Virus record (IMG/VR): IMGVR_UViG_3300008110_009594
Span: 1 to 34,097 of that record
DNA: 34,097 bases
Reading direction: 5' to 3' (one strand)
DNA from: a virus
The translations under genes were made by a program, and so were the position numbers. A model generated the notes under the pieces. That model was not told the DNA's origin. It saw nothing but the letters and a program-made list of their open reading frames with translations, and ran no database searches. Positions 1-34,097 of the stretch are shown one piece after another. The stretch's first letter is position 1; the number at the start of each line of letters is the position of its first letter.

Positions 1-253
1 TGCCGGTTGTACCTTGAGTTCCGCTATAGCCGGATATACCTGAATAACCAGAAGCTCCATCAGAAGGGCCTTGAGCACCAGTTATACCTTGAGCACCGAT
101 TTCGCCGGAATAGCCCGATGTGCCTTGAGCGCCGGTTTCGCCGGAATAGCCCGATGTGCCTTGAGCGCCGGTTTCGCCGGAATAGCCAGATGCACCTTGT
201 ATGCCGGTTGTACCTTGAGTTCCGCTATAGCCGGATATACCTGAATAACCAGA
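1..253. repeat. 201-bp-spaced direct repeat inside the collagen-like fibre region
   Basis: Bases 1-52 are identical to 202-253, an offset of 201 bp (67 codons, in frame). The similarity continues past a few mismatches. It encodes the interrupted triplet block containing GPS-D-GAS followed by GYS GIS GYS GTQ. Confidence 0.9.
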
Positions 254-2917
254 TGCTCCATCAGATGGGCCTTGTATGCCTGTAATACCTTGAGTGCCCT
301 GAATACCTTGCACGGTAGCAGTAGTCTGTCTGGTACCATCAGGAAATTTAAGGCCACCGTTTTGTACCCACAAATTATCTGCACTTGTTGCTGGCACTAC
401 AATAATACTGCCTGAGTCTCTTGCAGATAAAGTAATATTACCAGAATTATAATTGTTAATTATATCAACTTGTAATTTAGGTATTTGTACTCCGTAAGAT
501 TTACTACTATTTTCTATTCTAAAATCTGCATAACCTATTCCGGGGGTAGGGTATACATCCGGGTTTGCATCAAAAATTATAGTGTTGTTATCTCTGTATA
601 GTTTTAACGATACCGCGCTTGTACTAGTACTATTAGCGCCGCTTAATAAAGAAAATTTAATGGACCCATTATTATAAGGGGTTAAAATTATATCCGTAGC
701 AGAATTAGCGGAATTAGCAGTACCAGTGGTGGTTAGTAATAAACTTTCTCCTCTAGCATTTATAACTAATCCACGCGCATAAGACTCCCCATCCCCTGCA
801 GTTTTTACCGGCCAAAAAGTACCAAATGGTGTTAAGCTGTCTCCGTATGTTTGAGCAGGATCCTGTATAAGATTTAAACCTGCATAGCCCGGGGTGTCAG
901 AATTAATCTGTAGCCGGGCTGGTCCGTTATTAACATTTTTTACATTAATGGTACGACCTTCTATTTCTAAATACCTATCTTTTTCTAAACCGTAACCAAA
1001 CCCAGCACTTTTTAAACTTATTTTGCCTTTAGTACCAGCTTGTATAGTAATAGATGTAGTGGGTTCTAGGGCGCTCATTACTACAGTGCGCGTTCCATTA
1101 TCTAAAAAGGTAGTTACATTAGCTGAAGAAACCGGGGTAGTACCGAATTCATATATTTCTTGATTGCCTACCGTGACTTTTCTAGTTAAAATGCCGTTAT
1201 TACCAAGCATTTCAATTTTATACCCGCTCAATGCCTGCAAACGAGAAGGAACGTATATACCAGGAATTACATCATTATACCCTGGGCCAGAAGTAATAGC
1301 TATACTTGTAGAACTTAATAGGCCATATAATGTTAGTCCCTCATTACTATCATCTCCAAATTTTGGCCACCATGGTCTATCTCCTATTGCAAAACGAGTA
1401 CCTGCAGACACTCCTGGGTAACCATTAACTCTATAAAACTCTAGCCAAGTACCGCCAAATGCCTGTCCTTGCAAATCATCTATTAATTGAGTACCGGTGC
1501 CTGTAGTTTTATGTTGAATATAACCGTTATTTGCAGAAAGAGTAATATTACCGTTATGATTAGGGTTTGATGTGCCTATTATATAATGAGATGCGACAGT
1601 CCGGAAGGCATCAAACGCGCTTAGCACCATAGACTGATCTGTTGTACCGAAGCCTGACTGTACTATAGGGTCAGCATATATAATTAAATTATTCGCTGAA
1701 GTGATACTAGTATTATTATCAAAATTACCGTATAACGGGGCATTACCCACAGTCATTCTTCTAGTTAACGCGCCCTTTGGACCGACTAATTCAACTTTAG
1801 AGTCGTAACTATTGACTGCGCTTAAAGATGGAATATAAATACCGGGTATACTGTTTTTATAGCCCGGGCTAGAGGTTATAGCAATACTTGAGTCTTTACG
1901 AGTGCCGTAAATTTGTAGTCCTTCATTAGATTCTCCTGCTCGAGGCCACTGTACCGCGTCTGCTATTTTGTATGCAGTACCTACAAAGACGGAACTAGCT
2001 GCATTGGTTCTATAAAATTCTATCCAGTTACCGCCGTATGTAGTTTCATTTAAATTGTCTTTTATCTGTATGCCAGTACCTACTGTATCAAATATTATAT
2101 AACCATTATTTGCTGATAAAGTTATATTACCGTTAAGTAACGGGTTAACAGTGCCTATTGTATGCTCTGTTGCAAGAGACTTTAAGTTTTTGTATGCACT
2201 TAAAGTAATTGTGTCGCTACTAGTAGGAAAAATTAAAATATTATTTGCTGAAAGCGCGCTTGTACCGAAATTACCATATAATGGCGCATAACCTACTAAA
2301 AGTTGCTTAGTTTGAGCGCCGTTTGGGCCAATAAGCTCGACTTTTGCACCGTAATTTGTCGCGCTACTAACTGAAGGTACATAAATGCCTGGTATAGTAT
2401 TAATATACCCGGTAAAAGATGTTATAGCAATACTTGAGTCTTTACGAGTGCCGTAAATTTGTAGTCCTTCATTAGATTCTCCTGCTCGAGGCCACTGTAC
2501 CGCGTCTCCAAATTTATAAACCGGTCCTGAGTTAACCGACGCGCTTAGTGGATTTGCTCTTTCTAGTTCTAACCATACTCCGCCGAAATTGCTTTGTTGT
2601 AAATCATCTTTAATTGTTAAGCCTGGCCCTATCGTATCAATAACAACTCCGCCGTTATTAGCAGACAGTGTAATACTACCGTTCAATAGAGGGTTGGTAG
2701 TTTTTATATCTATATGAGCTGCTTTTTCAATTAATCTATCGTTTGGTACACCGTAAACAGTACCACCTGAAGACACGCTAATATTATAAGTGTTAATATT
2801 GCCCCCACCAGCACTCAACGCAGAAACTGCCGCATTTAAGTTAGCGAAATTAGTGTTGATAATAGTTCGACTATCTTTAAGGTAATCTGAAGGCTGTAAA
2901 ACGGTAATGTTGGCCAT
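1..2917 (-). CDS. Modular tail fibre with collagen-like repeats (partial, 3' end outside window)
   Basis: An open frame of 972 codons starts at ATG 2917 (protein begins MANITVLQPS) and has no stop before the left edge. Roughly residues 60-650 hold three related modules of about 182-194 residues, each with sequence like ITLSANNG, then SNEGLQIYGTRKDSSIAITS, then IPGIYVPS, then VGNAPLYGNF. Near residue 860 the motif LKFPDGTRQTTA appears, as is common ahead of phage fibre tips. It is followed by Gly-X-Y triplets (GYS, GET, GAQ, GTS) that continue to the edge. Modular beta-rich repeats followed by collagen-like triplets are typical of trimeric adhesion fibres, so I infer a receptor-binding or decorating fibre. 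It is the last gene seen in the leftward structural/replication block. The C-terminus, and any chaperone or receptor-binding tip, cannot be judged. Not assignable to a specific T4 fibre gene. Confidence 0.8.
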   Translation of the reverse strand, partial: MANITVLQPSDYLKDSRTIINTNFANLNAAVSALSAGGGNINTYNISVSSGGTVYGVPNDRLIEKAAHIDIKTTNPLLNGSITLSANNGGVVIDTIGPGLTIKDDLQQSNFGGVWLELERANPLSASVNSGPVYKFGDAVQWPRAGESNEGLQIYGTRKDSSIAITSFTGYINTIPGIYVPSVSSATNYGAKVELIGPNGAQTKQLLVGYAPLYGNFGTSALSANNILIFPTSSDTITLSAYKNLKSLATEHTIGTVNPLLNGNITLSANNGYIIFDTVGTGIQIKDNLNETTYGGNWIEFYRTNAASSVFVGTAYKIADAVQWPRAGESNEGLQIYGTRKDSSIAITSSPGYKNSIPGIYIPSLSAVNSYDSKVELVGPKGALTRRMTVGNAPLYGNFDNNTSITSANNLIIYADPIVQSGFGTTDQSMVLSAFDAFRTVASHYIIGTSNPNHNGNITLSANNGYIQHKTTGTGTQLIDDLQGQAFGGTWLEFYRVNGYPGVSAGTRFAIGDRPWWPKFGDDSNEGLTLYGLLSSTSIAITSGPGYNDVIPGIYVPSRLQALSGYKIEMLGNNGILTRKVTVGNQEIYEFGTTPVSSANVTTFLDNGTRTVVMSALEPTTSITIQAGTKGKISLKSAGFGYGLEKDRYLEIEGRTINVKNVNNGPARLQINSDTPGYAGLNLIQDPAQTYGDSLTPFGTFWPVKTAGDGESYARGLVINARGESLLLTTTGTANSANSATDIILTPYNNGSIKFSLLSGANSTSTSAVSLKLYRDNNTIIFDANPDVYPTPGIGYADFRIENSSKSYGVQIPKLQVDIINNYNSGNITLSARDSGSIIVVPATSADNLWVQNGGLKFPDGTRQTTATVQGIQGTQGITGIQGPSDGASGYSGISGYSGTQGTTGIQGASGYSGETGAQGTSGYSGETGAQGTSGYSGEIGAQGITGAQGPSDGASGYSGISGYSGTQGTTG
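101..185. repeat. 36-bp tandem repeat encoding four Gly-X-Y triplets
   Basis: Bases 101-136 and 137-172 are identical 36-bp units. A third, diverging unit starts at 173 and related sequence precedes 101. On the minus strand one unit encodes 12 residues, GYS GET GAQ GTS. The unit is in frame, so copy-number change would alter fibre length without frameshift. Confidence 0.9.
1875..2507. repeat. Two identical 87-bp segments from duplicated fibre modules
   Basis: Bases 1875-1961 are identical to 2421-2507, an offset of 546 bp (182 codons). A diverged third copy begins near 1293. These mark the SNEGLQIYGTRKDSS core of the repeating fibre module. The perfect identity at DNA level suggests recent duplication or gene conversion. 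Confidence 0.9.
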
Positions 2918-7027: not shown

Positions 7028-7400
7028 TGGGTAAAATTAAATTAAATTGCTCTATGTATTGATTTAGTTCTCTACTGGAAATTTCAAGGTTATTTGCAAT
7101 TTTTTGGATGTTTTCGTTACTCTTTTTTGTACTTTCTTTTTTAGATTTCTTTATATATTGGATACGTTTAAATTTACATTTAGGTAACGAAGTATTCAGA
7201 GCGATATACCATTCTTTATTGTTCTCTAGGCATTTCCAATATCTATTGGTAGTTTCATTCACTATAAACGCAATAGGCTCGGAATGCATAGAGCACCATC
7301 GTTGAACTAAAAAGGGCACAAAATCGTTACCCGATTCTATGCCCTCTAAAACTTTATCAACGTCGGTCTTGTATAAAATGCTATTTATATTATCAAACAT
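6999..7400 (-). CDS. Sliding-clamp loader small subunit (gp62-like)
   Basis: The 133-residue protein contains DFVPFLVQRWCSM, then an NETTNRYW segment, then LPKCKFKRIQYIKKSKKES and a helical tail. This PFxxxR-x-LSM / N-E-x-N / KRxxYIKK layout is what I know from the short gp62 proteins of exo-T-even and cyano-myophages. gp62 joins gp44 ATPase to load the gp45 clamp on DNA for the polymerase. The protein is shorter than T4 gp62 (187 residues), as in those phages. Neither gp44 nor gp45 is in the window. It shares one base with the upstream DUF366-like gene (TAATG). The assignment is moderate and rests on motif memory. Confidence 0.55.
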   Translation of the reverse strand: MFDNINSILYKTDVDKVLEGIESGNDFVPFLVQRWCSMHSEPIAFIVNETTNRYWKCLENNKEWYIALNTSLPKCKFKRIQYIKKSKKESTKKSNENIQKIANNLEISSRELNQYIEQFNLILPNEEKSTTQT

Positions 7401-7981
7401 TAAACAATAACCTTACTTGTCGCGACAAAAATATTATCTACCATCTGGTAAAACAGCTGATGAACCTGTCTCTGAAACAAATCAACCTGCTCCGGGGTAA
7501 GATTTGTACTATAAGCGAATGCCGGCGCTTTCTTACCTGCTGTTACGTTAATACCGGTATGCCCGATAGCTACGTTTTCTTTAGAATAGGTAATACTAAC
7601 TGAAGCCTTACCTCTTTGCTGTACAATACCGCCTTGATCGTGCTCAGCATGCACAATGATATCATCTCCTTTCATTTCAATAGGCTTTTTAATATGACTA
7701 TGCAAAACATTAGCAATGCTTGTATTAAAAAGACGTTGAAAACACACAGCGCCAAAAGGATCCAAATTAGGTATTTCCCAGCAGAAATTTACCATAGAAT
7801 CACTGTATATATAATCTTTTTCTAGAGAATCTTCAAGGTCAATAAGATTCAGAGTGACTTCAACTGGCGCTACAAATGAAACAATATTGCCTACAGCAAG
7901 AGTTTTGTCTCTAAAATACTTGTAAGCAAAACGCTTGTGAATAAATGAACCGTCGTATACTTTTTGGTCTGTGATGATCAT
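7400..7981 (-). CDS. DUF366-like protein
   Basis: The 193-residue protein has a pattern I associate with DUF366: VYDGSFIH near the N-terminus, IVSFVAPVEV, a conserved IDLED, YIYSDSMVNF, MKGDDIIV, ASVSITYS, and HTGINVTAG. The acidic clusters and the histidine/GIN segment could form an active site, but no reaction is known to me. An exact TATAAATA lies four bases upstream of the ATG, and the gene heads a tightly coupled set that includes gp62, co-chaperonin and two small genes. Because other 7-deazaguanine genes lie nearby, a link to base modification is conceivable; that is only inference from proximity. Confidence 0.6.
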   Translation of the reverse strand: MIITDQKVYDGSFIHKRFAYKYFRDKTLAVGNIVSFVAPVEVTLNLIDLEDSLEKDYIYSDSMVNFCWEIPNLDPFGAVCFQRLFNTSIANVLHSHIKKPIEMKGDDIIVHAEHDQGGIVQQRGKASVSITYSKENVAIGHTGINVTAGKKAPAFAYSTNLTPEQVDLFQRQVHQLFYQMVDNIFVATSKVIV

Positions 7982-8005: not shown

Positions 8006-8689
8006 TTAATATTTTCCATCGGCAAATTTTTGCATAAACCACGCTTGCCCAGCCAACCACTCATCGGTATATCTTTTTAAACCGTGAGAGTTGTGAACTA
8101 CATCTATATCTGCAGTACCTAGTTTTAATTTATTTTTATTACAGGTTAAACTAAAATCTATATCATAAAAATGTGCCACGCATGGATTGGTTTCGTCAAA
8201 CCACGTACTAGTGTCTAAGAGAGTTTTAGCTTTAAAAGCTAAAAACAGACCATCAAGTATTAACACTCTGCCTTGATTGCCGAAATGAGTAACAAACGTA
8301 TCATTTGTACCCTCGTAAACATGAGAGACTCTTCCCTTTAAAGTATCTCTAGGACACATTAAATGCCACAAGCATGGTTCAGTGATTTTCGCGCTTGAAC
8401 CGCCCGCGAGTCCTACCACATCATATTTTTCTAAGCTTTGCTCCAATTTTTCAATCCAATCGTTATCGGTTATACAGACGTCATCGTGTGTTAATACTAA
8501 AACAGCCTCTCGGTCAAATGTAGTAATATAGTTGTTATATACTTTTGCTAAAGAACTTTTATTACCGTATTTTACGGTGATCCCAGCATCACTGAGCCGA
8601 GCAGAATTTAGTATATGGTATTTATTATACCTCTGTCTCAATTCTGCTTCAGTATTAGCCTGAGAACAGCTTACAATTAGAGGTTTCAT
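8006..8689 (-). CDS. Glycosyltransferase, GT-A fold, family 2-like
   Basis: The 227-residue protein contains YGNKSSLAKVYN followed by VLVLTHDDVCI, with the HDD at 68-70 taken as the DxD-type metal/nucleotide-sugar site, then DVVGLAGGSS and a C-terminal HNSHG. This resembles the Glyco_tranf_2_5 group, cytosolic enzymes that move a sugar from a nucleotide donor. The acceptor cannot be read from sequence. It is separated from the seven other glycosyltransferases (22997-31041) and has its start two bases from the stop of an upstream small gene, so it is part of the leftward operon headed by queC. Confidence 0.75.
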   Translation of the reverse strand: MKPLIVSCSQANTEAELRQRYNKYHILNSARLSDAGITVKYGNKSSLAKVYNNYITTFDREAVLVLTHDDVCITDNDWIEKLEQSLEKYDVVGLAGGSSAKITEPCLWHLMCPRDTLKGRVSHVYEGTNDTFVTHFGNQGRVLILDGLFLAFKAKTLLDTSTWFDETNPCVAHFYDIDFSLTCNKNKLKLGTADIDVVHNSHGLKRYTDEWLAGQAWFMQKFADGKY

Positions 8690-9378: not shown

Positions 9379-10029
9379 TTAGAGTATGAAATATGGGGAC
9401 TTAGTTTTAAATGTATATTCTTTTACAATACTAGAGTTATTATTAATTCGGTAAATAGACCCTTCATCTAGCATTTGACTGTTATTAAACATAGTAGAGC
9501 AAAAATCTCCATTCTCTACATTAGCATATAGAGTGCAAGAATTACGAGCTATATACGTGTTTTTTGTACGTATATTATAAGCCCAAATAGCTAGTGTACC
9601 TTCAAGCTTACTCAGACCTTGCAAACCAAACATATCAAGTACGCGCGGTATAATACAGCTATCTGTACGCCCTTCGAAATTTTCTTTCGAGAAATATTCT
9701 TTACCTAGTTGCACAAAATTACTAATAATACCGTTATGAGCTACAATCCAATCTCCAAAGAAAAAAGGATGGTTATTAAGTTCGTTAAATTCTTTAGTTT
9801 CGGTAGTAGGTCCACGAGAATGATATAGGTAGTATAGTCCCTCAGTATGTATACCAGGCACACAAGCAGGTTCTGCAAGATCTCTAAACTTACCTTGAGT
9901 TTTTTCACATACCCACATACCTAGATCGTCGAGCACTATAGAACCTGAACTGTAATAGCCTCTATCAAGATTGCTCTGATAAAGTAAATACGCTCGGTCT
10001 TTATTATTAGAACCAGCTATACCACACAT
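9379..10029 (-). CDS. Stand-alone class II glutamine amidotransferase paired with QueC
   Basis: The protein begins MCGIAG, so removal of Met would expose the N-terminal nucleophile Cys2 of Ntn-type glutaminases. Further class II marks are SRGPTTET, the glutamine-binding HNGIISNF and FEGRTDSC. At 216 residues it is only the glutaminase domain; no PurF, GlmS or AsnB synthase domain follows. Its start is one base past the queC stop, so the two are probably co-translated. In known phage and archaeal systems a GAT-QueC fusion, or a GATase working with QueC, turns preQ0-type precursors into amidated 7-deazaguanines. I infer that this enzyme hydrolyses glutamine and passes ammonia to the QueC product. 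The order here is QueC then GAT, and the two are separate. Confidence 0.85.
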   Translation of the reverse strand: MCGIAGSNNKDRAYLLYQSNLDRGYYSSGSIVLDDLGMWVCEKTQGKFRDLAEPACVPGIHTEGLYYLYHSRGPTTETKEFNELNNHPFFFGDWIVAHNGIISNFVQLGKEYFSKENFEGRTDSCIIPRVLDMFGLQGLSKLEGTLAIWAYNIRTKNTYIARNSCTLYANVENGDFCSTMFNNSQMLDEGSIYRINNNSSIVKEYTFKTKSPYFIL

Positions 10030-10030
10030 A

Positions 10031-10750
10031 TTATAAATAGGTTAATTCTCTGCAGTTGTACTTAGACCATGGTATATCTTTTTTATAAGCAATGGGGTCG
10101 ACAGCCTCATTATCAATAAAACCTTTAATTCGAGCAGCGCACGATACGCATTCCCCGCATGCGGGGTCAGTCCCTTCATAACAAGTATGGGTTTGACGGA
10201 AGTCTACCTGCAAATTAATACCGGTTCTAATTACTTCTTCTTTGGAGAAAGACATAAACGGAGCCTTGACTTGAATATTATTTTTACGGTTCAGATTATA
10301 AACGTCGTTAACTTTATTCAGGAAAAGAGAAGTACAGTCCCAATAACCGCTGAAATCATCAGTTTGTACTGCTCCATAATACAGGTGTTCTGCTCCAATA
10401 CTTTCAGCCCAACCAGCTGCAGTGGTTAAAAGCAAGAGATTGCGAAATGGTACGTAACTTAAAGGCTGAGCATTACCGATATCTTCTCTAGCCTTAGGAA
10501 TTTTAAGATCTGTATTAGTTAAAGCAGACATCTTTGAAATGTCTCTAAAGAAATCCATATTAACAATTTTATGTTCGGTCACGCAGCAGTCCTTTGCTTG
10601 AAACTTGGCACACTCTATTTCTCGAGCAATCCGCTGACCATAATTAAAAGTAATAGCGTATACCTCTTTATAGTCAAGTACATGTGCAACATGATGGAGC
10701 AGCACGGTACTATCCATGCCACCGGAAAGAATAACTAGAGCTTTTGACAT
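10031..10750 (-). CDS. queC: 7-cyano-7-deazaguanine (preQ0) synthase
   Basis: The 239-residue protein has the PP-loop SGGMDS at 9-14, the YVPFRN motif in the middle, and the zinc site formed by Cys190, Cys198, Cys201 and Cys204 (CxxCxxC preceded by an upstream Cys). Length and layout match bacterial QueC. It converts 7-carboxy-7-deazaguanine to preQ0 using ATP and ammonia. With queD and queE at 15391-16646 and DpdA at the right edge, it most likely feeds DNA-base modification rather than tRNA queuosine. It is the first gene of the leftward block, opposite a divergent gene at 10810. Confidence 0.95.
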   Translation of the reverse strand: MSKALVILSGGMDSTVLLHHVAHVLDYKEVYAITFNYGQRIAREIECAKFQAKDCCVTEHKIVNMDFFRDISKMSALTNTDLKIPKAREDIGNAQPLSYVPFRNLLLLTTAAGWAESIGAEHLYYGAVQTDDFSGYWDCTSLFLNKVNDVYNLNRKNNIQVKAPFMSFSKEEVIRTGINLQVDFRQTHTCYEGTDPACGECVSCAARIKGFIDNEAVDPIAYKKDIPWSKYNCRELTYL

Positions 10751-15390: not shown

Positions 15391-16191
15391 TTAAACCTTT
15401 AATGCTTTGTCCCAGATTTGAAGGTGCATACGGTTACTGAACTTAAAACCGTACTTCTTACAGATTTCCGCAACAACAGGACCTACTTCAAGTAACTCCT
15501 TACGGGAACCGCACATAGGCATAATCCAGACAAGTTCACTCTTCAGAGCTACGTCTGGATTATTAATGTACTTTTCAAGTACTTCGTCAAGGTCAGATTC
15601 TTGCTTTGCAACAAACTTAAAGCAAGCGTGGTGTTTAGCAAGAAAGCGCAATACATCTGGCTTGAAGCGCTTCTCTTCAGGGTCTCCGTTCGAAGATAGT
15701 TTAGGAGAAGTTGTAAACGATACGCTGCACCCGATATCAAACCACTCCTTATCAGGCATAATAGTACCGTTGGTTTCAAAATCGATTTTTAAAACAGAGG
15801 CCTCTGGCAAAGGTACCATAAGGTCATGACTAGACATATCATAAAAGCCCCAGCGATCTCTAATAAACTTTACAAACTCAATAAGATTCTTTTGCTGAAT
15901 AAAAGGCTCTCCGCCAGTAAGCTTAAGAATAGCTCCTTGCTTAAGCTTTTCGTGGTAGTCGTTCTTTTCGAACAACTGAGCAATCTCTTCAAATGTCATC
16001 CTGTTCTTCTTAGACCAGCTTACATAACTATCGCAACCAAAAGGAGCGTCTTCACTCTTAAAACCTATACAGGTGAGATTGCACATTGACAGTCTCATAA
16101 AGACTGAAGGCCAACCGATAAAGCGGCCTTCCCCCTCAAGAGTATAAAAGACGAAGTCGTCTGAAAGAAATAAAGTTTTATCAGCACTCAT
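15391..16191 (-). CDS. queE: 7-carboxy-7-deazaguanine synthase (radical SAM)
   Basis: The 266-residue protein carries the QueE start pattern FYTLEGEGRFIGWPSVFMRL, then the cluster cysteines Cys37, Cys41 and Cys53, and LTGGEP near residue 91. It rearranges 6-carboxy-tetrahydropterin to 7-carboxy-7-deazaguanine. The cysteines read Cx3C-x11-C rather than the canonical Cx3Cx2C, with a loop between the second and third, as some QueE subfamilies have. It overlaps queD by ATGA (16188-16191), so the two are translated together. Confidence 0.93.
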   Translation of the reverse strand: MSADKTLFLSDDFVFYTLEGEGRFIGWPSVFMRLSMCNLTCIGFKSEDAPFGCDSYVSWSKKNRMTFEEIAQLFEKNDYHEKLKQGAILKLTGGEPFIQQKNLIEFVKFIRDRWGFYDMSSHDLMVPLPEASVLKIDFETNGTIMPDKEWFDIGCSVSFTTSPKLSSNGDPEEKRFKPDVLRFLAKHHACFKFVAKQESDLDEVLEKYINNPDVALKSELVWIMPMCGSRKELLEVGPVVAEICKKYGFKFSNRMHLQIWDKALKV

Positions 16192-16646
16192 GACATATTA
16201 TTAGTATACTTTTGATAAATTGCACTATTTTGTTCGTGCTCCCACACCTCTACTTTTTCACACCAGCATCTATTTTGAGTAATAGCTTTTACATGTCCAT
16301 CGGCTGTTTCGCAGCAAAGCTCGGCGAACCGCTCAATACCTACCCCGTTAGGGAGTTCTACGAGCTCGATCATACCACGTTTTTCCATATCTCTAAACAC
16401 TTCAATATCTGGATCTTTTTTCCAGACTACAGTCTTATGATCGAAAGTGTTTTCAAGTGCTCTCTTCAGCTCTTTAAGACCCCCGAAGTCGACTACCCAG
16501 TTATTTTTATCTAGCTCGTTACAGGTAAACCAGAATTTAGCCTGTAAACGGTAGCCGTGAATAAATTTGCAATGACTGGTTGCGTAAGGCTGACGAAATG
16601 CGCATGAACCAAGCGGTATAACTTTAGTAGAATAGAATTTACCCAT
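16188..16646 (-). CDS. queD: 6-carboxy-tetrahydropterin synthase family protein
   Basis: The 152-residue protein matches the QueD/PTPS fold: SHCKFIHGYRLQAKFWF near residues 24-40, VVDFGGLKELK, and FDH at the position of the catalytic Asp-His. It would turn dihydroneopterin triphosphate into 6-carboxytetrahydropterin, the QueE substrate. The usual CxxxHGH zinc motif reads CKFIHGY here (Cys26, His30, Tyr32), and the first zinc His is not in its usual place, so metal binding must use another arrangement such as His25. I recall this variant from other phages and bacteria. It is the first gene of a leftward operon. Confidence 0.85.
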   Translation of the reverse strand: MGKFYSTKVIPLGSCAFRQPYATSHCKFIHGYRLQAKFWFTCNELDKNNWVVDFGGLKELKRALENTFDHKTVVWKKDPDIEVFRDMEKRGMIELVELPNGVGIERFAELCCETADGHVKAITQNRCWCEKVEVWEHEQNSAIYQKYTNNMS

Positions 16647-21952: not shown

Positions 21953-23000
21953 ACTAAAAAATTCAGAAGTAGGTATATTTTCAGATCCACACTACGGAGT
22001 ACACCGCAATTCCGAGGTATGGCATAAAATCGCTTTAGACCACGCTAAGTGGACTGCTCAGCAATTCAAAGAGCGCGGTATTCAAGATATTATTATACCA
22101 GGAGATATTTTTCATGATCGCAACGACATTGCTGTTAACACTCTTCATGTTGCTACTGACATATTCGATATATTCAGCAACTTCAATATCATTATTACAG
22201 TCGGTAATCACGATGCTTATTATCGTGACAATTCTAGCGTTAATTCCGTCTCCATTCTTAGAGGCTGGACTAATATTACTGTTATTGACTCTCTTCAAGT
22301 TGTTGAACTTCACGGAGCGAAAATAGCTTTTTGTCCGTGGGGCCAGAATATTGAAGAGGTACCTGAATGTGATCTTATAGTTGGCCACTTTGAAATTAAT
22401 AGCTTTAAAATGAATTCGTACAAGGTATGTACGAATGGACTTAAAGCGTCAGATTTAGTCAATAGAGCGAAGCTTACTATTACTGGTCATTTTCATCATA
22501 GAGATGAACGCAAATATAATGATGGTACAATATTGTATGTAGGTAGTCCCTATCAACAAGACTGGGGTGATTTTGGCACTACTAAAGGTCTGTATATTTT
22601 AGATTTAACTAATTTAAAATACGAATTTATTGAAAATAATATTTCACCTCGGTATATGAGATTGCGTTATACCGAACTTACAAACGGTACCTACACTTCT
22701 GACACTCTTAAAGCTGCTCTGACTAATAATATTGTTAAATTCATAGTGGATCAAACTGTTGAACCTGTTAAGTTAGATACAATAATACGCAAATTGGTAA
22801 CAATTAAACCTACTGAGTTTACAATTGAGCACGATGTTACAGAGCAGAGCAAACTCAATATAGAAGAAGCAGCTAATAAAGAATTTAATATTAGTATAGA
22901 AAAATCTATAGAAGAATTTATCGACCTAATGGACGTTAAGGAAAAAAATAAAGTAAAGCTCTATATTTCAGACTTATACACCCGCGCATCTAAATTATGA
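21942..23000 (+). CDS. SbcD/Mre11-like recombination nuclease subunit (gp47)
   Basis: Metallophosphoesterase motifs appear in order: FSDPHYG, GDIFHDR, VGNHD, GHFE and GHFHHRD. About 352 residues from ATG 21942; ATG 21915 has AGGAG only three bases upstream and is an alternative. gp47 is the nuclease partner of gp46 and prepares ends for recombination and degrades host DNA. It is usually adjacent to gp46, but here six glycosyltransferase genes separate them. The ATGA overlap with the first of these shows translational coupling. Confidence 0.9.
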   Translation: MQIKLKNSEVGIFSDPHYGVHRNSEVWHKIALDHAKWTAQQFKERGIQDIIIPGDIFHDRNDIAVNTLHVATDIFDIFSNFNIIITVGNHDAYYRDNSSVNSVSILRGWTNITVIDSLQVVELHGAKIAFCPWGQNIEEVPECDLIVGHFEINSFKMNSYKVCTNGLKASDLVNRAKLTITGHFHHRDERKYNDGTILYVGSPYQQDWGDFGTTKGLYILDLTNLKYEFIENNISPRYMRLRYTELTNGTYTSDTLKAALTNNIVKFIVDQTVEPVKLDTIIRKLVTIKPTEFTIEHDVTEQSKLNIEEAANKEFNISIEKSIEEFIDLMDVKEKNKVKLYISDLYTRASKL

Positions 23001-23974
23001 AAATATGTATACACTCTAATCAATTTGATGGAAGAGGTACAGGTAAAACTCCGTATGATTACGGATTAGCCTTAAGAGATATTTTAGGCCATGATGTATG
23101 TTATATGACTTCCATGCAGAGTAAAAACGAGGGATTACACCGTATAGCTAAGGAGTTTCCGGTTTACATGTACCCCGGGAAAGCAGATGTTAGTCCATCA
23201 TCTGAGGTTAAAACTCAAATTGAGCAATTAGTAGATCAACATAAAATTGATTTTATACAAATGCTTAAATACGGTACTAACGATAAAGTAACACCCACTA
23301 ACTGTAAGACAGGAATACACTATGTTTTTAATGGAGCTGAGCCACACGGAGATGTCTACGCAGCTGTATCAGAAAATTTAGCTAAAAAATTTAATAAAAC
23401 AGATTACGTACCGCATATAATACGCAAATTAGAACCTACTAAAGACATACGAGCAGCTTTAAATATACCCAAAGATGCTTTAGTAGTAGGTCGTCATGGT
23501 GGATACGAAACCTTCGATTTACCGTTTGTGTGGGAAGCCGTGGCTGAAACAGTTAATAAACGTAAAGATATTTATTTCTTATTTCTTGCAACTAAGCCGT
23601 TTATGCAACACGAAAGAGTGTTGCATTTTGACTGGGTCCCTGATGAACGTGGTATATATAATTTTATACATGCTTGCGACATTATGCTGCATGCACGTCA
23701 TATGGGAGAAACGTTCGGGCTATCAGTAGGAGAGTTTGCAGCTTGTAATAAACCGGTTATGACCTGGCACGGACTAGGCCATGGATTTTATGATACTGCA
23801 CATATTGATCAACTTAAAGGTAAAGCTATACAATATAGACTTGGCCACGAAATAGTCGATTACCTTACTAATATTAAGCCAGCTGATTTTTCAGGTACTA
23901 ATTGGGACACGTTCACAGAGACATTTAGCGATTATAATGTAATTAAACGTTACGAAAACGTATTTTTAAAATGA
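22997..23974 (+). CDS. Glycosyltransferase, GT-B fold (GT4-like)
   Basis: The 325-residue protein has a C-terminal nucleotide-sugar half with VVGRHGGYETFDLPFVWEAV, IYFLFLATKPF, WVPDERGIYNFIHACDIMLHAR and GETFGLSVGEFAACNKPVMT. This matches GT-B enzymes with an E-x7-E type motif (GETFGLSVGEF). The N-terminal half begins KICIHSNQFDGRGTGK, a donor/acceptor loop. The acceptor is unknown. First gene of the cassette inserted after gp47, coupled by ATGA at both ends. Confidence 0.82.
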   Translation: MKICIHSNQFDGRGTGKTPYDYGLALRDILGHDVCYMTSMQSKNEGLHRIAKEFPVYMYPGKADVSPSSEVKTQIEQLVDQHKIDFIQMLKYGTNDKVTPTNCKTGIHYVFNGAEPHGDVYAAVSENLAKKFNKTDYVPHIIRKLEPTKDIRAALNIPKDALVVGRHGGYETFDLPFVWEAVAETVNKRKDIYFLFLATKPFMQHERVLHFDWVPDERGIYNFIHACDIMLHARHMGETFGLSVGEFAACNKPVMTWHGLGHGFYDTAHIDQLKGKAIQYRLGHEIVDYLTNIKPADFSGTNWDTFTETFSDYNVIKRYENVFLK

Positions 23975-24801
23975 AAATTGGGGTAGGCATAATTACTTGC
24001 AATAGACCAGAGTATCTATTGAATCTTTTAAAAACTATACCTATTGATCGGATATCTCATCTTGTTGTAGTTAATGATGGGGACGAAAAGAATAAGCACG
24101 ATCTAAGATATCCAGGTGTGTGGGTACAAAATGAAAAGAATTTAGGAGTGGGTAAATCTAAAAATAAAGCTATGAAGCATCTTTATGATAAGGGATGCGA
24201 CTATATTTTTATTATTGAGGATGATATGCTTATTAAAGACGAAAACGTATTTTACAGGTATATTGAAGCATATTCTCAAACTGGTATACATCATTTTAAT
24301 TACGGTCCAGGCTCACCATTTAACCGTAAACAAAAAATACAGTTTGATCTACATAACAGACATCTTTTAGACCAAAAAAGTCCTGTTAATCCTAAACTTA
24401 TAGTCGAATACCCTAATAATGTTAAAATTGCACTGTATGAACACACTGTAGCGATGTTTTCATTTTTTACTCGTACTGTACTGGAAAGAGTAGGCTATAT
24501 AGATGAACAATTTTATAATGCATGGGAACACGTCGATCATACATATCGTATTGCTTTGGCCGGTTATCATCCTCCGTTCTGGTGGTTTGCTGATATAGCT
24601 GATAGTGAAAAGTATTTAGAAGAAGCTCCTGGTGCAATTGACAACTCTTCTATTGCTAATAAGACTGAGCAATGGCAAAAAAATGTGTATGGTGGTAGAG
24701 AGCTTTATAAAACAAAGCACGGTCACTACCCAAATGAACCTAAGTCGTATAACTTAAATCAGGTTATCGACATATTAAAGAAAATAGAAAAACGCAAATG
24801 A
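23971..24801 (+). CDS. Glycosyltransferase family 2 (GT-A)
   Basis: The 276-residue protein starts VGIITCNRPEYLLNLL and contains VVVNDGDE, NLGVGKSKNKAM, and IFIIEDDMLI, whose EDD at 83-85 is the metal/nucleotide-sugar site. The later YIDEQFYNAWEHVDHTYRI matches the acceptor-side ED/H motif of GT2 enzymes. Second gene of the cassette, overlapping the genes on both sides by four bases. Confidence 0.88.
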   Translation: MKIGVGIITCNRPEYLLNLLKTIPIDRISHLVVVNDGDEKNKHDLRYPGVWVQNEKNLGVGKSKNKAMKHLYDKGCDYIFIIEDDMLIKDENVFYRYIEAYSQTGIHHFNYGPGSPFNRKQKIQFDLHNRHLLDQKSPVNPKLIVEYPNNVKIALYEHTVAMFSFFTRTVLERVGYIDEQFYNAWEHVDHTYRIALAGYHPPFWWFADIADSEKYLEEAPGAIDNSSIANKTEQWQKNVYGGRELYKTKHGHYPNEPKSYNLNQVIDILKKIEKRK

Positions 24802-25550
24802 ACGAAATAGTCACATACGGACAAAATTATTCCCTCAATGACGGGATTAAAAAGTTTATTGATTCTGCTGTTAAAACCGGCGCCAGCGTTGTTGTATTGA
24901 CGAACAATGTTAAGCAAGACGTAAAAGACTACATACTACAATATAAGAACGCCCGCTGTGTAAGTGCAGAAAAGATTGCTAAGACTTATAATGTAGACTT
25001 AAACCTTTCCCCCTACACTCTTAAAGTTATCTTTTTTTATCTTTACACTAAGCACCTATCTCATGCAGATAATGTATTTTTATGTGATTTTACCGACGTA
25101 TATTTTAATAGAACAGTATTTGATAGAGAGTATACTAAACCGGTAGTGTTTGGGGAAAACGTATTAATTGAAGCTTGCCCGACTAATACTACCTGGATTA
25201 ATGTATGCTACAATCAAGATATTTTTAATCTATTAAAAAATTACGAAATTATTAATGGAGGAGCTATACTTGGACCTAAAGATAAATGTGCCGATTTGCT
25301 TAAAGAAATGTGTGCTGATATATCGGTAATACTTGGCCGTACTGGTAATTACCCGAATATTGACCAAGCTATTCTTAACAAGGTTGTGCGGTTTGATTAT
25401 TATCGTTATGAAGTAGGTTCTAAAAATATTGTGCTTAATTTAGCTCAATATAAAGAGCTTAGAAAGTGGAGCAAAGAAAACGTTCCAGCTGTTTTTCACC
25501 AATATGACGGACACCTCGATGTAGAAAGGTTTATAAATGAGCAAAGTTGA
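24798..25550 (+). CDS. Putative glycosyltransferase (GT-A-like, DxxD type)
   Basis: The 250-residue protein contains VFLCDFTDVYF (Asp97 and Asp100 as a probable divalent-metal site), NGGAILGPKD, NIDQAILNKV and a late VFHQYDGH. This order (DxxDV, NGG, DQ..LN, H-x-DGH) resembles nucleotide-sugar transferases of GT8/GT77-like groups. The family is not certain. Third cassette gene; 14-bp overlap with the next. Confidence 0.68.
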   Translation: MNEIVTYGQNYSLNDGIKKFIDSAVKTGASVVVLTNNVKQDVKDYILQYKNARCVSAEKIAKTYNVDLNLSPYTLKVIFFYLYTKHLSHADNVFLCDFTDVYFNRTVFDREYTKPVVFGENVLIEACPTNTTWINVCYNQDIFNLLKNYEIINGGAILGPKDKCADLLKEMCADISVILGRTGNYPNIDQAILNKVVRFDYYRYEVGSKNIVLNLAQYKELRKWSKENVPAVFHQYDGHLDVERFINEQS

Positions 25551-26277
25551 TGTAATTATTTTATCTTTAGCAAATGATGAGACAAGCTTTCATACCACTA
25601 AACGCTGTGTAGATTCTTATCTTGATACCGCTAATGAACTTATTAGACAAATTTTTGTAATTGAGTCTTACAAGGATTTTAACAAAAATTATGGTAATGA
25701 CAAAGTACAGGTAATTATTCCACCGTATGAATTTAATTACAATCAGTTTTATAACATTGGTTTAAGTCATTGTACCGCCCCCTATGTTATGGGTCCTAAT
25801 AACGATTTAATTATACAGGAAAACTGTGTACAAAATATTGTTAAAGAATTTGAGTCTAATCCAGATATAAGTTCTATTAGCCCCGTAGACAGAGAATGGC
25901 ATCGCCACACTAAGCTCTATTTACCTAATGATAGTAAGCTTTATTATGGATGGGAAGTATCTTTGCATATGTTCGGTTGCGTATTTTGTGCGAGAAGAAG
26001 CGTATTTGAAAAGATAGGCTATCTAGATGAACAGTTTTATTTCTTTTATCAAGACAATGATTATGTTTACTCTTTAAGAGCTAATAACTTACTACACGGG
26101 GTGTTAACAAGTGCGCGAGTTAAACATAAGTCAGGCGCTACTTCTCCTAAAGGGCCTACCCGCTGCAAGTATACTCCGCATAATATGAACACTCAAGGAG
26201 ATATACTAGGTCGTAAGTGGAATAGTGAGCCTTTTAAGTCAGGTGGTTATATACCTTATAAAAAATACGTAATGTAA
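25537..26277 (+). CDS. Glycosyltransferase family 2 (GT-A)
   Basis: The 246-residue protein starts VDVIILSLANDETSFHTTKR and contains YNQFYNIGLSHC, MGPNNDLII (NND at 88-90 as metal site) and GYLDEQFYFFYQDNDYVYSL, the ED-type catalytic segment of rhamnosyl/galactofuranosyl-like GT2 enzymes. It shares the YLDEQFY/YIDEQFY block with the enzyme at 23971, suggesting an old duplication. Fourth cassette gene; its TAA stop shares a base with the next ATG. Confidence 0.85.
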   Translation: MSKVDVIILSLANDETSFHTTKRCVDSYLDTANELIRQIFVIESYKDFNKNYGNDKVQVIIPPYEFNYNQFYNIGLSHCTAPYVMGPNNDLIIQENCVQNIVKEFESNPDISSISPVDREWHRHTKLYLPNDSKLYYGWEVSLHMFGCVFCARRSVFEKIGYLDEQFYFFYQDNDYVYSLRANNLLHGVLTSARVKHKSGATSPKGPTRCKYTPHNMNTQGDILGRKWNSEPFKSGGYIPYKKYVM

Positions 26278-31071: not shown

Positions 31072-33633
31072 GTGTACCGTAACATTTATTATAGTTCGAG
31101 AGAGGGTCTAGCGTACCTTTTTACTTGGGATGAAAACGGCGATCGGGTTGTAACTAAGACCCCTTATCGTCCGTATTTCTACGTAGAAACCAACTTAGAC
31201 GCTTTTGATGCAGTTTCTATTTATAATACTAAGCTTAAGAAGAAGGAATTTAAGAATGGGTATGAACGTAATCAAGCTGCTCAAGACGGCGCAATAAAAA
31301 GGCTCTATCATAATATACAGGTTGAGCAGCAGTTTCTTATCGAAAAGTACAAGGATCTTTACGACAAGCCTGAATTTTCTAAAGACCCGGTTAAAGTTTG
31401 TTTTCTAGACATTGAGGTGCACAGCCCAGATGAATTCCCAGAAGCAAAGGACGCAAAGCACCCTATTAATCTTATTACGATTTACGATAATCTGTCTAAG
31501 ACCTTTTACACCTGGGGCGCTAAGGCATATAAGCCTAAAAAAACTAATGTAGTTTATACTGAGTGTGAAAGCGAAATAGACTTACTAGATAAATTTTTAG
31601 ACTTCTGGGAAAATGGTTATTACCCGGATATCCTGTCTGGGTGGAACACGGACTTTTTCGACTTTCCTTATCTTATTAACCGCATTACTAAACTACGTGG
31701 AGAGAGCGCAGCAAAACGTCTTTCACCTCTTAAGAGTCTTTGGTGTCGCAAAGGAATCTTCGTAAAGGGTCAAGAACTAGACCGCTGGTATATTCACGGT
31801 ATATCAGCAATGGATTACCTTGAAGTTTATAAAGGTTTCGCTCGTGGACTACTTGAGTCTTATGCGCTTAACTTCGTTGCACAGCACGAATTAGGTGAAG
31901 GTAAGCTAGCAATTAACGCTACTAACCTAGCAACTCTATCTGAGACTGACTGGGATAATTTCGTAGACTATAACATTCAGGACGTTGATCTGTTAGTGCG
32001 AATGGAGAACAAATTACAGTTCTTTAAGATTATTCGTATGCTTGCGTATAAAGGGCTTACGAGCTTTGAAGCAGCCCTAGGTAAAGTATCTATTGTTACT
32101 GGTTGTGTTGCATTGGAGGCTTACAAGCACGGTCTGGTTATACCGACCTTTGTTGAAGGGCCTACAAGAGAAGCTATTGAAGGTGGATATGTAAGAGACC
32201 CAGAAAGAGGCTTAAAGACGTCTATTGTAAGCTACGATGCTAATTCTCTATACCCTAATACCATTATCACACTTAATATCTCTCCTGAAACAAAGGTAGG
32301 TAAGATAAAACAAAAGGATGAAGATAACACCGTATTACTATTGACCAGTGGTAAAGAATACAAATTACCTAATGACAAGTTTGAAAAATTCTTAGAGGTA
32401 GAAAAGATAGCTATATCCAAAGCAGGCGTACTGTACACTCAAAAGAAGAAGGGGGTTGTACCTTCTCTGATTGACGGTCTTTATAGCGAACGGGTGAAAA
32501 ATAAAAATCAGTATGTTGAGCTCAAGAAAAAGCTAAGTAAGATAGAAGCAGATACGGATGACTACAAAACGTGTAAGTTCAATATGGAGCGGGCCGACAC
32601 CATCCAACACGTCATCAAGATTCTACTCAATTCTATTTACGGTGTTTTTGCTAATAAGTTTAGTCCTATTTGTGATAGTGATCACGCCGGTAGCATTACT
32701 CTCACTGGTCAGTCTGTGGTCAAGCAAGCGTCGGTCATCTTAGACACCTATGCAAAAGAAAGGCATGGTATTGATACATCCTTGACTATATATGGAGATA
32801 CTGACAGTACCCATGTAACTATACAACCTATTGTTAACAAGCTTAAGTTAAAGTTGTTTGAAAATAATAAAGTTACTCAGGAAGGGTTGGATCTTATCGA
32901 TAAAGAAATCGGTACGTATCTTAATGCTGAGATCAAGAAGTGGTCTGCTTCCGAATTTCGCTCTATTGATCCTCGTTATTTCTTTAAAAGAGAATCTATT
33001 TGCGATGTAGGAGTGTATCTACAAAAGAAGCGTTATATCATACACGTCTTAAATGATGAAGGTGCAGACGTTAATAAGTTTAAGTACGTAGGAGTTGAAA
33101 TTGCGCGTTCGACTACACCTAAAAAAGCTAAAGAATTAATTAAACAGGTAATTGAGACTTCTTTGATCGGACAAGATCAAAATAAAGCTAATAAACTTTA
33201 CAAGGAGGTTTATGATAAGTTTAAAAGTCTCTCAGTAGATGATATCGCAATACGCGGGGGTCTGAGCGACCTCGAAAAGTACGAGAGTAAAGCTAACGGC
33301 TTTAAAATCGCTACTGGTACACCTAATCACGTAAAAGGCGCAATCTGGTACAATCAATTACTCAAGCATCTAAAGTTAGAAACCAAATACGAACGCATTA
33401 CTTCTGGCGGTAAAGTTAAGAAGATTTATATTGCTCCTAACAAATATAATATTGATACTCTTTGCTACCCGGTGAGTTTTCCTCCTGAATTTAAACATTT
33501 TGAAGTAGATTATGTCGAAATGTTCGATACAATTATTAAACCGCCTGTACTTGCTGTTTATGAAGCAGTAGGGTGGAGACTGCCTGATGTTAATAACGAA
33601 ACCGAAGTAGACCTATTTGAATTTTTCTCATGA
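31072..33633 (+). CDS. Family B DNA polymerase (gp43-like)
   Basis: The 853-residue protein starts at GTG 31072. Exonuclease motifs are complete: DIE at 113-115, WNTDFFD at 191-197 and YNIQD at 300-304. Polymerase motifs are also complete: YDANSLYP at 388-395 (motif A), KILLNSIYG at 516-524 (motif B), YGDTDST at 574-580 (motif C) and KKRY at 652-655. It is the replicative polymerase with proofreading. It is close to T4 gp43 (898 residues) in length, and its stop overlaps the dpdA ATG (ATGA). Confidence 0.95.
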   Translation: MYRNIYYSSREGLAYLFTWDENGDRVVTKTPYRPYFYVETNLDAFDAVSIYNTKLKKKEFKNGYERNQAAQDGAIKRLYHNIQVEQQFLIEKYKDLYDKPEFSKDPVKVCFLDIEVHSPDEFPEAKDAKHPINLITIYDNLSKTFYTWGAKAYKPKKTNVVYTECESEIDLLDKFLDFWENGYYPDILSGWNTDFFDFPYLINRITKLRGESAAKRLSPLKSLWCRKGIFVKGQELDRWYIHGISAMDYLEVYKGFARGLLESYALNFVAQHELGEGKLAINATNLATLSETDWDNFVDYNIQDVDLLVRMENKLQFFKIIRMLAYKGLTSFEAALGKVSIVTGCVALEAYKHGLVIPTFVEGPTREAIEGGYVRDPERGLKTSIVSYDANSLYPNTIITLNISPETKVGKIKQKDEDNTVLLLTSGKEYKLPNDKFEKFLEVEKIAISKAGVLYTQKKKGVVPSLIDGLYSERVKNKNQYVELKKKLSKIEADTDDYKTCKFNMERADTIQHVIKILLNSIYGVFANKFSPICDSDHAGSITLTGQSVVKQASVILDTYAKERHGIDTSLTIYGDTDSTHVTIQPIVNKLKLKLFENNKVTQEGLDLIDKEIGTYLNAEIKKWSASEFRSIDPRYFFKRESICDVGVYLQKKRYIIHVLNDEGADVNKFKYVGVEIARSTTPKKAKELIKQVIETSLIGQDQNKANKLYKEVYDKFKSLSVDDIAIRGGLSDLEKYESKANGFKIATGTPNHVKGAIWYNQLLKHLKLETKYERITSGGKVKKIYIAPNKYNIDTLCYPVSFPPEFKHFEVDYVEMFDTIIKPPVLAVYEAVGWRLPDVNNETEVDLFEFFS

Positions 33634-34097
33634 TTAAAATTTCTCACGAATCCCCTCTTAGTATGCTCGATATTTCTCGTACATACAATGATTATGACTA
33701 CGCTTTAGTACATCTCTTTGAAAAGCACCCTAGCTACTATCAGTTCTTCGAAGACAGTCTCCGTCAAGGTCGTACAGTGCTTCTTGATAATTCTATTTTC
33801 GAGCTTGGTACAGCTTTTGATAGTCATAAATACATGGACTGGATTAATAAGCTTAACCCGTCTGAATATATTATTCCAGATGCTCTGGAAGATTGCGATG
33901 CAACTATTGCTAAAGCAAAATCTTGGATGGACTATAATGCTTACCATATCACCGCTCAATCCAAGAGAATCGGTGTAGTACAAGGTACAAATTATGGTGA
34001 ACTAGTAAAGTGTTACACGGTTTTAGATAAACTAGGCGTAGATAAGATTGCTATTTCTTTTGATTACTCTCACTACCTAAGGGAGTTTCCGTATAAT
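33630..34097 (+). CDS. DpdA-like 7-deazaguanine DNA transglycosylase (partial, 3' end outside window)
   Basis: 156 codons are open from ATG 33630 to the right edge. TGT-like elements are visible: TVLLDNSIFELG at 49-60 (aligning with the TGT D-S-G-G-F catalytic strand, Asp53), YIIPDALED at 80-88, and IGVVQGTNYGELVKCY at 114-129 (TGT has IVQGG followed by an Arg/Leu helix). DpdA swaps guanine in DNA for preQ0 or a derivative. The remaining catalytic Asp and zinc ligands would lie beyond the edge. It is coupled to the polymerase gene by ATGA, and its pathway partners queC, queD, queE and the amidotransferase are in the window. Subfamily cannot be assigned. Confidence 0.8.
   Translation, partial: MIKISHESPLSMLDISRTYNDYDYALVHLFEKHPSYYQFFEDSLRQGRTVLLDNSIFELGTAFDSHKYMDWINKLNPSEYIIPDALEDCDATIAKAKSWMDYNAYHITAQSKRIGVVQGTNYGELVKCYTVLDKLGVDKIAISFDYSHYLREFPYN

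What the first reader, a model, noticed from the sequence alone, without database searches (positions are those of the whole stretch)
9379..10750. Split QueC and glutaminase in reverse order to known GAT-QueC fusions
A lone Ntn glutaminase domain with Cys2 and no synthase domain follows queC by one base. Known GAT-QueC enzymes that make archaeosine-type bases are fused with the glutaminase first. Separate subunits in the opposite order suggest either the ancestral two-subunit state or an independent assembly, and point to an amidated final base (ADG or G+).
Basis: partly seen in the sequence, partly recalled or inferred. Interest (0 to 1): 0.65.

Follow-up and report, generated by a model that had tools for sequence, protein, structure and literature searches.

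The report
Phage QueC with separate glutaminase subunit
This virus of bacteria makes an altered form of the DNA letter G, and the enzyme that builds its nitrogen-bearing side group (QueC) is paired in the genome with a small separate protein that probably feeds it ammonia taken from glutamine, an arrangement found in many phages, where the partner gene is mostly labelled 'hypothetical'.

Summary
On the minus strand a canonical QueC (10750-10031) is followed after one base by a 216-aa class II (Ntn) glutaminase with Cys2 and no synthase domain (10029-9379). The pair is not a curiosity of this contig: all 59 IMG/VR contigs found with QueC alone and reaching past the gene carry the glutaminase next (-26 to +20 bp). 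The same split order, mostly annotated hypothetical, occurs in the cultivated KVP40/nt-1 group, Pseudomonas phage pf16 and Vibrio phage 2.275.O. Both proteins form their own clades, apart from archaeal and phage fused Gat-QueC, with correlated divergence (r=0.91). The partner QueC keeps canonical motifs with a Y-W-D variant; fused Gat-QueC has Y-P-D-N. The window ends inside a DpdA-like DNA guanine transglycosylase. In syntenic relatives this gene is followed by a formyltransferase, a kinase-like gene and a QueF reductase, as in Flavobacterium phage immuto. Most likely: a glutamine-dependent preQ0 synthase of two subunits feeding QueF, with a preQ1-type (perhaps formylated) end product. Nothing was tested in vitro; physical association and the final base are inferred.

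The parts
10031..10750 (-). QueC (7-cyano-7-deazaguanine / preQ0 synthase), 239 aa; motifs SGGMDS, YGQRIAREIE, VPFRN, YWDC, C-x7-CGECVSC
   Evidence: Pfam QueC E=7.6e-62; NCBIfam TIGR00364 over cut-off; motif table
9379..10029 (-). Stand-alone class II (Ntn) glutaminase, 216 aa, Cys2 nucleophile, R72, N99-G100, D123; proposed glutaminase subunit of QueC
   Evidence: GATase_6/7; conservation; AlphaFold2 model matching GlmS glutaminase domain; tree; purifying selection
15391..16191 (-). QueE (7-carboxy-7-deazaguanine synthase, radical SAM), makes the QueC substrate CDG
   Evidence: PHROG 2076 QueE-like E=4.8e-41
16188..16646 (-). QueD (6-carboxytetrahydropterin synthase)
   Evidence: PTPS E=3.9e-17; PHROG 2389 E=2.1e-38
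33630..34097 (+). 5' part of dpdA (DNA guanine transglycosylase), cut off by the contig end
   Evidence: about 49% identical to immuto DpdA and 66% to the relative's DpdA; relative's full protein finds immuto 'DNA guanine transglycosylase' and Campylobacter CP220; full-length relative only weakly matches Pfam TGT, E=0.015
8006..8689 (-). Glycosyltransferase-like protein (PF13712), linked gene; role in the pathway unknown
   Evidence: PF13712 E=1.3e-9; kept downstream of the glutaminase in distant lineages
7400..7981 (-). DUF366 (PH1223-like) protein, linked gene; role unknown
   Evidence: DUF366 E=3.6e-21; 78-99% identity in the window's family; present with QueC in every locus that had room

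Best explanation
The two genes encode the synthetase and glutaminase subunits of a glutamine-dependent preQ0 synthase. The glutaminase (Cys2 nucleophile after Met removal) hydrolyses glutamine and passes ammonia to QueC, which uses it with ATP to turn 7-carboxy-7-deazaguanine (from phage QueD and QueE, and FolE in relatives) into the amide and then the nitrile preQ0. In this phage family preQ0 is then reduced by a phage QueF to preQ1, put into DNA in place of G by the phage DpdA, and probably altered further, possibly formylated by the formyltransferase encoded next to dpdA. Shown by computation: the gene pair, its conservation across phages, clades separate from fused Gat-QueC, catalytic residues, and the pathway genes in relatives. 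Inferred: physical association, ammonia channelling, the order of steps, the final base, and that this phage carries the downstream genes that lie beyond the end of its contig.
For: 59 of 59 contigs found with QueC alone have the glutaminase next, and every glutaminase locus with room has QueC. The same split pair occurs in KVP40/nt-1, pf16 and 2.275.O. Each protein forms one clade with matching subclades and distance correlation r=0.91, 0 of 10000 permutations as high. Class II residues C2, N99, G100 and D123 are invariant in 44 of 44 family members, R72 in 43; fold matches the GlmS glutaminase domain. pN/pS shows purifying selection. The window QueC retains the YxQ, VPxRN and zinc motifs (motifs from PMC13329287). 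Synteny PolB-DpdA-formyltransferase-kinase-QueF in long relatives matches immuto gp206-gp202; QueF found in 9 of 14 long contigs, FolE in 4. The QueF is bimodular, best hit TIGR03138 QueF at 214-221 bits (below its 293-bit cut-off), with motif ESKSMKLYWNSFN and SNCKITKQPD. QueF genes also lie in the operons of pf16 and 2.275.O. From memory: QueC uses ammonium and passes through an amide (Nelp and Bandarian 2015).
Against: No complex could be modelled and no assay exists. Ordinary QueC works on free ammonium without a partner. In L172 the glutaminase sits next to QueF, about 5 kb from QueC, so QueF could be its client there. Several lineages (KVP40 group, pf16, L015, L247) have Gln in place of the glutamine-binding Arg72, so activity there is uncertain. 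nt-1, with the same split pair and no QueF over the cut-off, has trace dPreQ0, dADG and dG+ (PMC6884629), so products may vary between lineages. QueF and the formyltransferase are not in the window.
Confidence: 0.66

Rival explanations
1. The pair is a split archaeosine-type enzyme that works like fused Gat-QueC: QueC makes preQ0 and the glutaminase supplies a further ammonia to give G+ (formamidine), or the reaction stops at the amide ADG, so the DNA carries an amidated base.
For: Fused Gat-QueC of phage 9g yields dG+ in E. coli (PMC6884629). nt-1, which has the split pair, contains traces of dADG and dG+. The DpdA of this family is also related (41%) to that of Campylobacter CP220, reported with 100% dADG.
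Against: Partner QueCs lack the Gat-QueC signature (an Asn at the end of the YPDC motif and an extra residue in the first motif, in 24 of 24 fused enzymes) and are a separate clade. QueF and a formyltransferase are conserved beside dpdA in relatives. CP220 makes ADG without this glutaminase. The paper credits an ArcS homolog in nt-1, and levels there are 0.02-0.11% of G.
Confidence: 0.17
2. The glutaminase serves another enzyme of the pathway, such as QueF acting as an ammonia-dependent amidinotransferase (QueF-L type), and its place next to QueC only reflects operon organisation.
For: In L172 the glutaminase overlaps the QueF gene and QueC lies about 5 kb away. QueF-L uses only free ammonium, and its authors left open an ammonia-generating partner (PMC5485725).
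Against: In the window family QueF lies far from the glutaminase (about 25 kb in G001) while QueC is adjacent in 59 of 59 contigs. The QueFs are bimodular with the NADPH motif. nt-1 has the glutaminase but no QueF over the cut-off.
Confidence: 0.08
3. The glutaminase works with the neighbouring glycosyltransferase or another gene (amino-sugar chemistry, as in GlmS) and has nothing to do with QueC.
For: Nearest solved relatives are GlmS glutaminase domains; a glycosyltransferase-like gene follows in many lineages.
Against: No sugar isomerase domain is present; the glutaminase is a clade separate from GlmS; in nt-1, pf16 and 2.275.O it pairs with QueC with no glycosyltransferase listed next to it; tight QueC coupling and correlated divergence.
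Confidence: 0.06

Closest known systems
Fused Gat-QueC (archaeal Thermoproteota and phages such as 9g, Vid5, Nipunavirus)
   Same: A class II glutaminase combined with QueC; phage-borne examples sit in preQ0 gene clusters with QueD, QueE, FolE and a transglycosylase.
   Different: Fused, glutaminase first; Y-P-D-N instead of Y-W-D in the QueC part and an extra residue in the YxQxHxxE motif; separate clades for both domains; product dG+ in 9g.
Split QueC-glutaminase pairs in KVP40/nt-1, pf16 and Vibrio phage 2.275.O, mostly unannotated
   Same: Same order, adjacency, clade and Y-W-D motif of QueC.
   Different: Only 27-28% identical glutaminases; Arg72 replaced by Gln; nt-1 uses DpdA2; QueF present in pf16 and 2.275.O but not found in nt-1.
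Flavobacterium phage immuto 7-deazaguanine cluster
   Same: Homologous DpdA (about 49%), formyltransferase, kinase-like gene and QueF in the same order.
   Different: A divergent solo QueC and no glutaminase.
Campylobacter phage CP220 (Firehammervirus), dG fully replaced by dADG
   Same: Related DpdA (41%) and phage-encoded preQ0 pathway genes.
   Different: No glutaminase found and no QueF over the cut-off.
Canonical bacterial QueC
   Same: QueC fold and most catalytic motifs.
   Different: E. coli QueC has YPDC and no dedicated glutaminase; it is taken to use free ammonium (from memory).

Membership tests
QueC (PF06508, 7-cyano-7-deazaguanine synthase) | Family profile match over curated cut-off | tested here: met
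   Pfam 209 bits vs 22; TIGR00364 177.6 vs 150.3
QueC (PF06508, 7-cyano-7-deazaguanine synthase) | SGGxDS, VPxRN and C...CxxCxxC motifs; YxQxHxxE and YPDC motifs | tested here: inconclusive
   SGGMDS, VPFRN and the zinc cysteines are present; YGQRIAREIE lacks the His and YWDC replaces YPDC
QueC (PF06508, 7-cyano-7-deazaguanine synthase) | Converts CDG to preQ0 | not testable with these tools
   needs an enzyme assay or complementation of E. coli delta-queC
Class II (Ntn) glutamine amidotransferase domain | N-terminal Cys nucleophile exposed after Met removal | tested here: met
   MCG start; Cys2 in 44 of 44 family members
Class II (Ntn) glutamine amidotransferase domain | Ntn fold of the glutaminase domain | tested here: met
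   AlphaFold2 model vs 1xff, Z 21.4, rmsd 2.8, 197 residues
Class II (Ntn) glutamine amidotransferase domain | Glutamine-binding Arg and Asp and oxyanion Asn-Gly | tested here: met
   R72, D123, N99-G100 align with GlmS R73, D123, N98-G99; Arg is Gln in other lineages
Gat-QueC (archaeosine-type fused enzyme) | Glutaminase and QueC fused in one chain, glutaminase first | tested here: not met
   two ORFs, QueC first
Gat-QueC (archaeosine-type fused enzyme) | QueC part with the Y-P-D-N signature and membership of the fused clade | tested here: not met
   YWDC; separate clade 100/99
Gat-QueC (archaeosine-type fused enzyme) | Product G+ | not testable with these tools
   needs mass spectrometry
GlmS / PurF / AsnB | Glutaminase joined to its own synthase domain and grouping with that family | tested here: not met
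   216 aa, no synthase domain; separate clade in the tree
DpdA DNA guanine transglycosylase | Homology to a characterised or annotated DpdA | tested here: met
   cut N-terminal part 49% identical to immuto DpdA; relatives' full proteins match immuto and CP220
DpdA DNA guanine transglycosylase | Match to the TGT family (PF01702) over its cut-off | tested here: not met
   window fragment no match; full relative 14.9 bits vs 26.3; phage DpdA subfamilies are known to be divergent (DpdA2 is missed by PSI-BLAST from 9g DpdA, PMC6884629)

The most novel reading that the evidence does not exclude
A widespread phage enzyme, a two-subunit glutamine-dependent preQ0 synthase, arose independently of Gat-QueC, with a QueC specialised (Y-W-D motif) to receive channelled ammonia. 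In the window family it feeds a pathway ending in a new or rare hypermodified base, such as formylated and possibly glycosylated preQ1, replacing much or all of the guanine in the genome.
Probability: 0.2. Interest if true: 0.72.

Novelty: new variant of a known kind. Interest (0 to 1): 0.5.

Why it matters
QueC has been treated either as an ammonium-using solo enzyme or as part of the fused archaeosine enzyme Gat-QueC. A conserved separate glutaminase gives a third arrangement, suggests that QueC acquired a glutaminase at least twice, and corrects the shortcut 'glutaminase near QueC means archaeosine'. It also assigns a likely function to an unannotated protein in well-known cultivable phages (KVP40, nt-1, pf16), where the idea can be tested directly by gene removal and mass spectrometry.

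Tried and rejected
DNA-level search of the pair against isolate phages gave nothing. tblastn of the window glutaminase against isolate phages found only weak matches in unannotated Listeria, Staphylococcus and Enterococcus records; the KVP40 and pf16 homologues appeared only through the intermediate L015. Pfam finds no family in the nt-1 glutaminase. Pfam TGT barely sees this DpdA, so a first search suggested it was absent; a relative's protein then found it in 12 of 15 window-family records (the window included) and in the distant contig G149. DUF366 was considered as a pathway enzyme but no paper tying it to deazaguanine was found. The genome scan for cellular stand-alone homologues returned GlmS-type proteins of 600 aa or more plus one Flavobacterium MAG contig that may be phage-derived. 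A single-sequence model of QueC was not finished in time and is not used. The key paper on phage formylated and methylated preQ1 (Cui 2023, PMC10516641) is not in the library, so its enzymes are cited from memory only.

Full report
What is there. The window is a 34,097-base viral contig fragment of a T4-like phage: tail sheath stabiliser gp15, UvsY, a UvsW-type helicase, an SbcCD-like pair and a family B DNA polymerase. On the minus strand QueC (10750-10031) is followed after a single base by a 216-residue protein (10029-9379) that begins MCGIAG and matches class II glutamine amidotransferase domains, with no second domain. QueE (16191-15391) and QueD (16646-16188) lie upstream. The last ORF (33630-34097, plus strand, cut off) is the start of a DpdA-type DNA guanine transglycosylase, about 49% identical to that of Flavobacterium phage immuto.

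Is the pairing real? A scan of viral contigs with QueC alone returned 62 contigs. All 59 that extend past queC have the glutaminase as the next gene, with spacing from -26 to +20 bases, most often +1 or +3; the other three end within 46 bases of queC. In the wider set every glutaminase locus with enough upstream sequence has QueC (some contigs are counted more than once there). L025 and L082 have 0.8 kb inserted between the two genes, and L015 1.4 kb. No QueC-glutaminase fusion was seen. pN/pS comparisons show purifying selection on the glutaminase.

How far does it reach? Using the intermediate L015, the same stand-alone glutaminase was found in 51 isolate phage records, among them KVP40, nt-1, pf16 and Vibrio phage 2.275.O; where the neighbourhood was read (nt-1, pf16, 2.275.O) it lies directly after QueC, and it is annotated as hypothetical or as 'nucleophile aminohydrolase'. 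More distant metagenomic lineages (L239-L248) have it too, nearly all adjacent to QueC. A profile search finds no such glutaminase in immuto or in Campylobacter phage CP220.

Ancestry. In a tree of 52 glutaminase domains the stand-alone proteins form one group (99/96), the fused Gat-QueC domains of archaea and phages another (100/97), and GlmS with PurF and AsnB a third. In a tree of 47 QueC sequences the partners of the stand-alone glutaminase form one group (100/99) placed among ordinary QueCs, and the fused QueC domains form another (100/100); holding partners and fused together as one clade gives AU p=0.059. The trees are unrooted, and some rows have long branches. Pairwise distances of glutaminase and QueC correlate at r=0.91, with 0 of 10,000 permutations as high. 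This correlation is expected of linked genes as well as of interacting proteins, so it supports long co-inheritance rather than proving contact.

Active sites. Cys2, His98-Asn99-Gly100 and Asp123 are invariant in 44 of 44 family members and Arg72 in 43; by alignment C2, R72, N99-G100 and D123 correspond to GlmS Cys1, Arg73, Asn98-Gly99 and Asp123. The predicted structure (pLDDT 92.6) matches the GlmS glutaminase domain with Z 21.4. In the KVP40, pf16 and some other lineages Arg72 is Gln. The window QueC has SGGMDS, YGQ, VPFRN and the zinc cysteines. Where most solo QueCs read YPDC, all 24 fused enzymes end the motif in D-N (23 read YPDN, one FGDN), and the partners read Y-W-D or Y-F-D (one HWD) followed by C, T, A or G. 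The motifs and their importance are from PMC13329287.

What the pathway makes. Long relatives of the window (G001, G002, G006 and others) have, behind the polymerase, dpdA, a PurN-like formyltransferase, a kinase-like gene and QueF, in the same order as immuto gp206, gp204, gp203 and gp202. QueF was found in 9 of 14 long contigs and FolE in 4; all are partial genomes. The QueF is about 310 residues, bimodular, best matched by TIGR03138 but below its cut-off, and keeps the NADPH motif ESKSMKLYWNSFN and the SNC...QPD catalytic stretch. pf16 and 2.275.O also carry QueF beside or near QueC and the glutaminase. These genes point to preQ1 or a formylated preQ1 rather than ADG or G+. The identity of the formyl product rests on memory of Cui et al. 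2023, which could not be read here. In the distant contig G149 (51 kb) the pair occurs with a DpdA relative, QueD and QueE, but no QueF or formyltransferase was seen, so the end product may differ between lineages.

Mechanism. QueC needs ammonia to turn the CDG acid into the amide and then the nitrile. The likeliest role of the glutaminase is to supply that ammonia from glutamine. Phages that replace a large share of their guanine need that nitrogen for every modified base, which would make a dedicated supply useful; this last point is inference. The competing reading, a split archaeosine enzyme, is weakened by the QueC motifs, the separate clades and the QueF-formyltransferase context, and by CP220, whose DNA is reported as fully dADG (PMC8306585) without this glutaminase. 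It is kept alive by nt-1, whose DNA contains traces of dPreQ0, dADG and dG+ (PMC6884629) and which has the split pair and no QueF over the cut-off.

Novelty. Known kinds are solo QueC and fused Gat-QueC. A split pair in the opposite order, in clades of its own and widespread in phages, is a new variant. No paper in the library holds the words QueC, glutaminase and phage together, which covers only open-licence papers; Cui 2023 and its supplements could not be checked.

Noticed in passing
window 22997-28024 (+): Six consecutive genes, four with glycosyltransferase matches; 23971-24801 matches TET-associated glycosyltransferase PF20691 (E=1.5e-7). Could glycosylate DNA or a surface structure.
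   Followed up: no
window 7400-7981 (-): DUF366 protein, 78-99% identical across the family and present with QueC-glutaminase in every locus with room; only a weak match to solved structure 2ddz.
   Followed up: partly
window 8006-8689 (-): PF13712 glycosyltransferase-like gene stays close behind the glutaminase even in lineages with about 31-37% identical glutaminases.
   Followed up: partly
L241, L243, L245, L247 (QueC genes); immuto QueC in L150: QueC has lost the zinc-binding cysteines although the rest of the protein is conserved.
   Followed up: no
L128:12714-13322, L160:6001-6639, L161:6001-6615, L172:1220-1834: Stand-alone glutaminases in which the glutamine-binding Arg is replaced by Gln, Cys2 and Asp retained.
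   Followed up: partly
L172 (Flavobacterium MAG contig): Glutaminase overlaps a QueF gene, with QueE, FolE and QueC nearby; possibly a phage contig binned into a bacterial genome.
   Followed up: partly
G001, G002, G003, G004, G006, G007, G008, G010, G012 behind dpdA: A PurN-like formyltransferase is conserved next to dpdA, as in immuto.
   Followed up: partly
L025 and L082 between queC and the glutaminase gene: About 0.8 kb extra sequence separates the pair, possibly a mobile element or homing gene.
   Followed up: no
window 2-2917 (-): Large ORF with collagen-like repeats (PF01391 E=1.5e-11), possibly a tail fibre.
   Followed up: no
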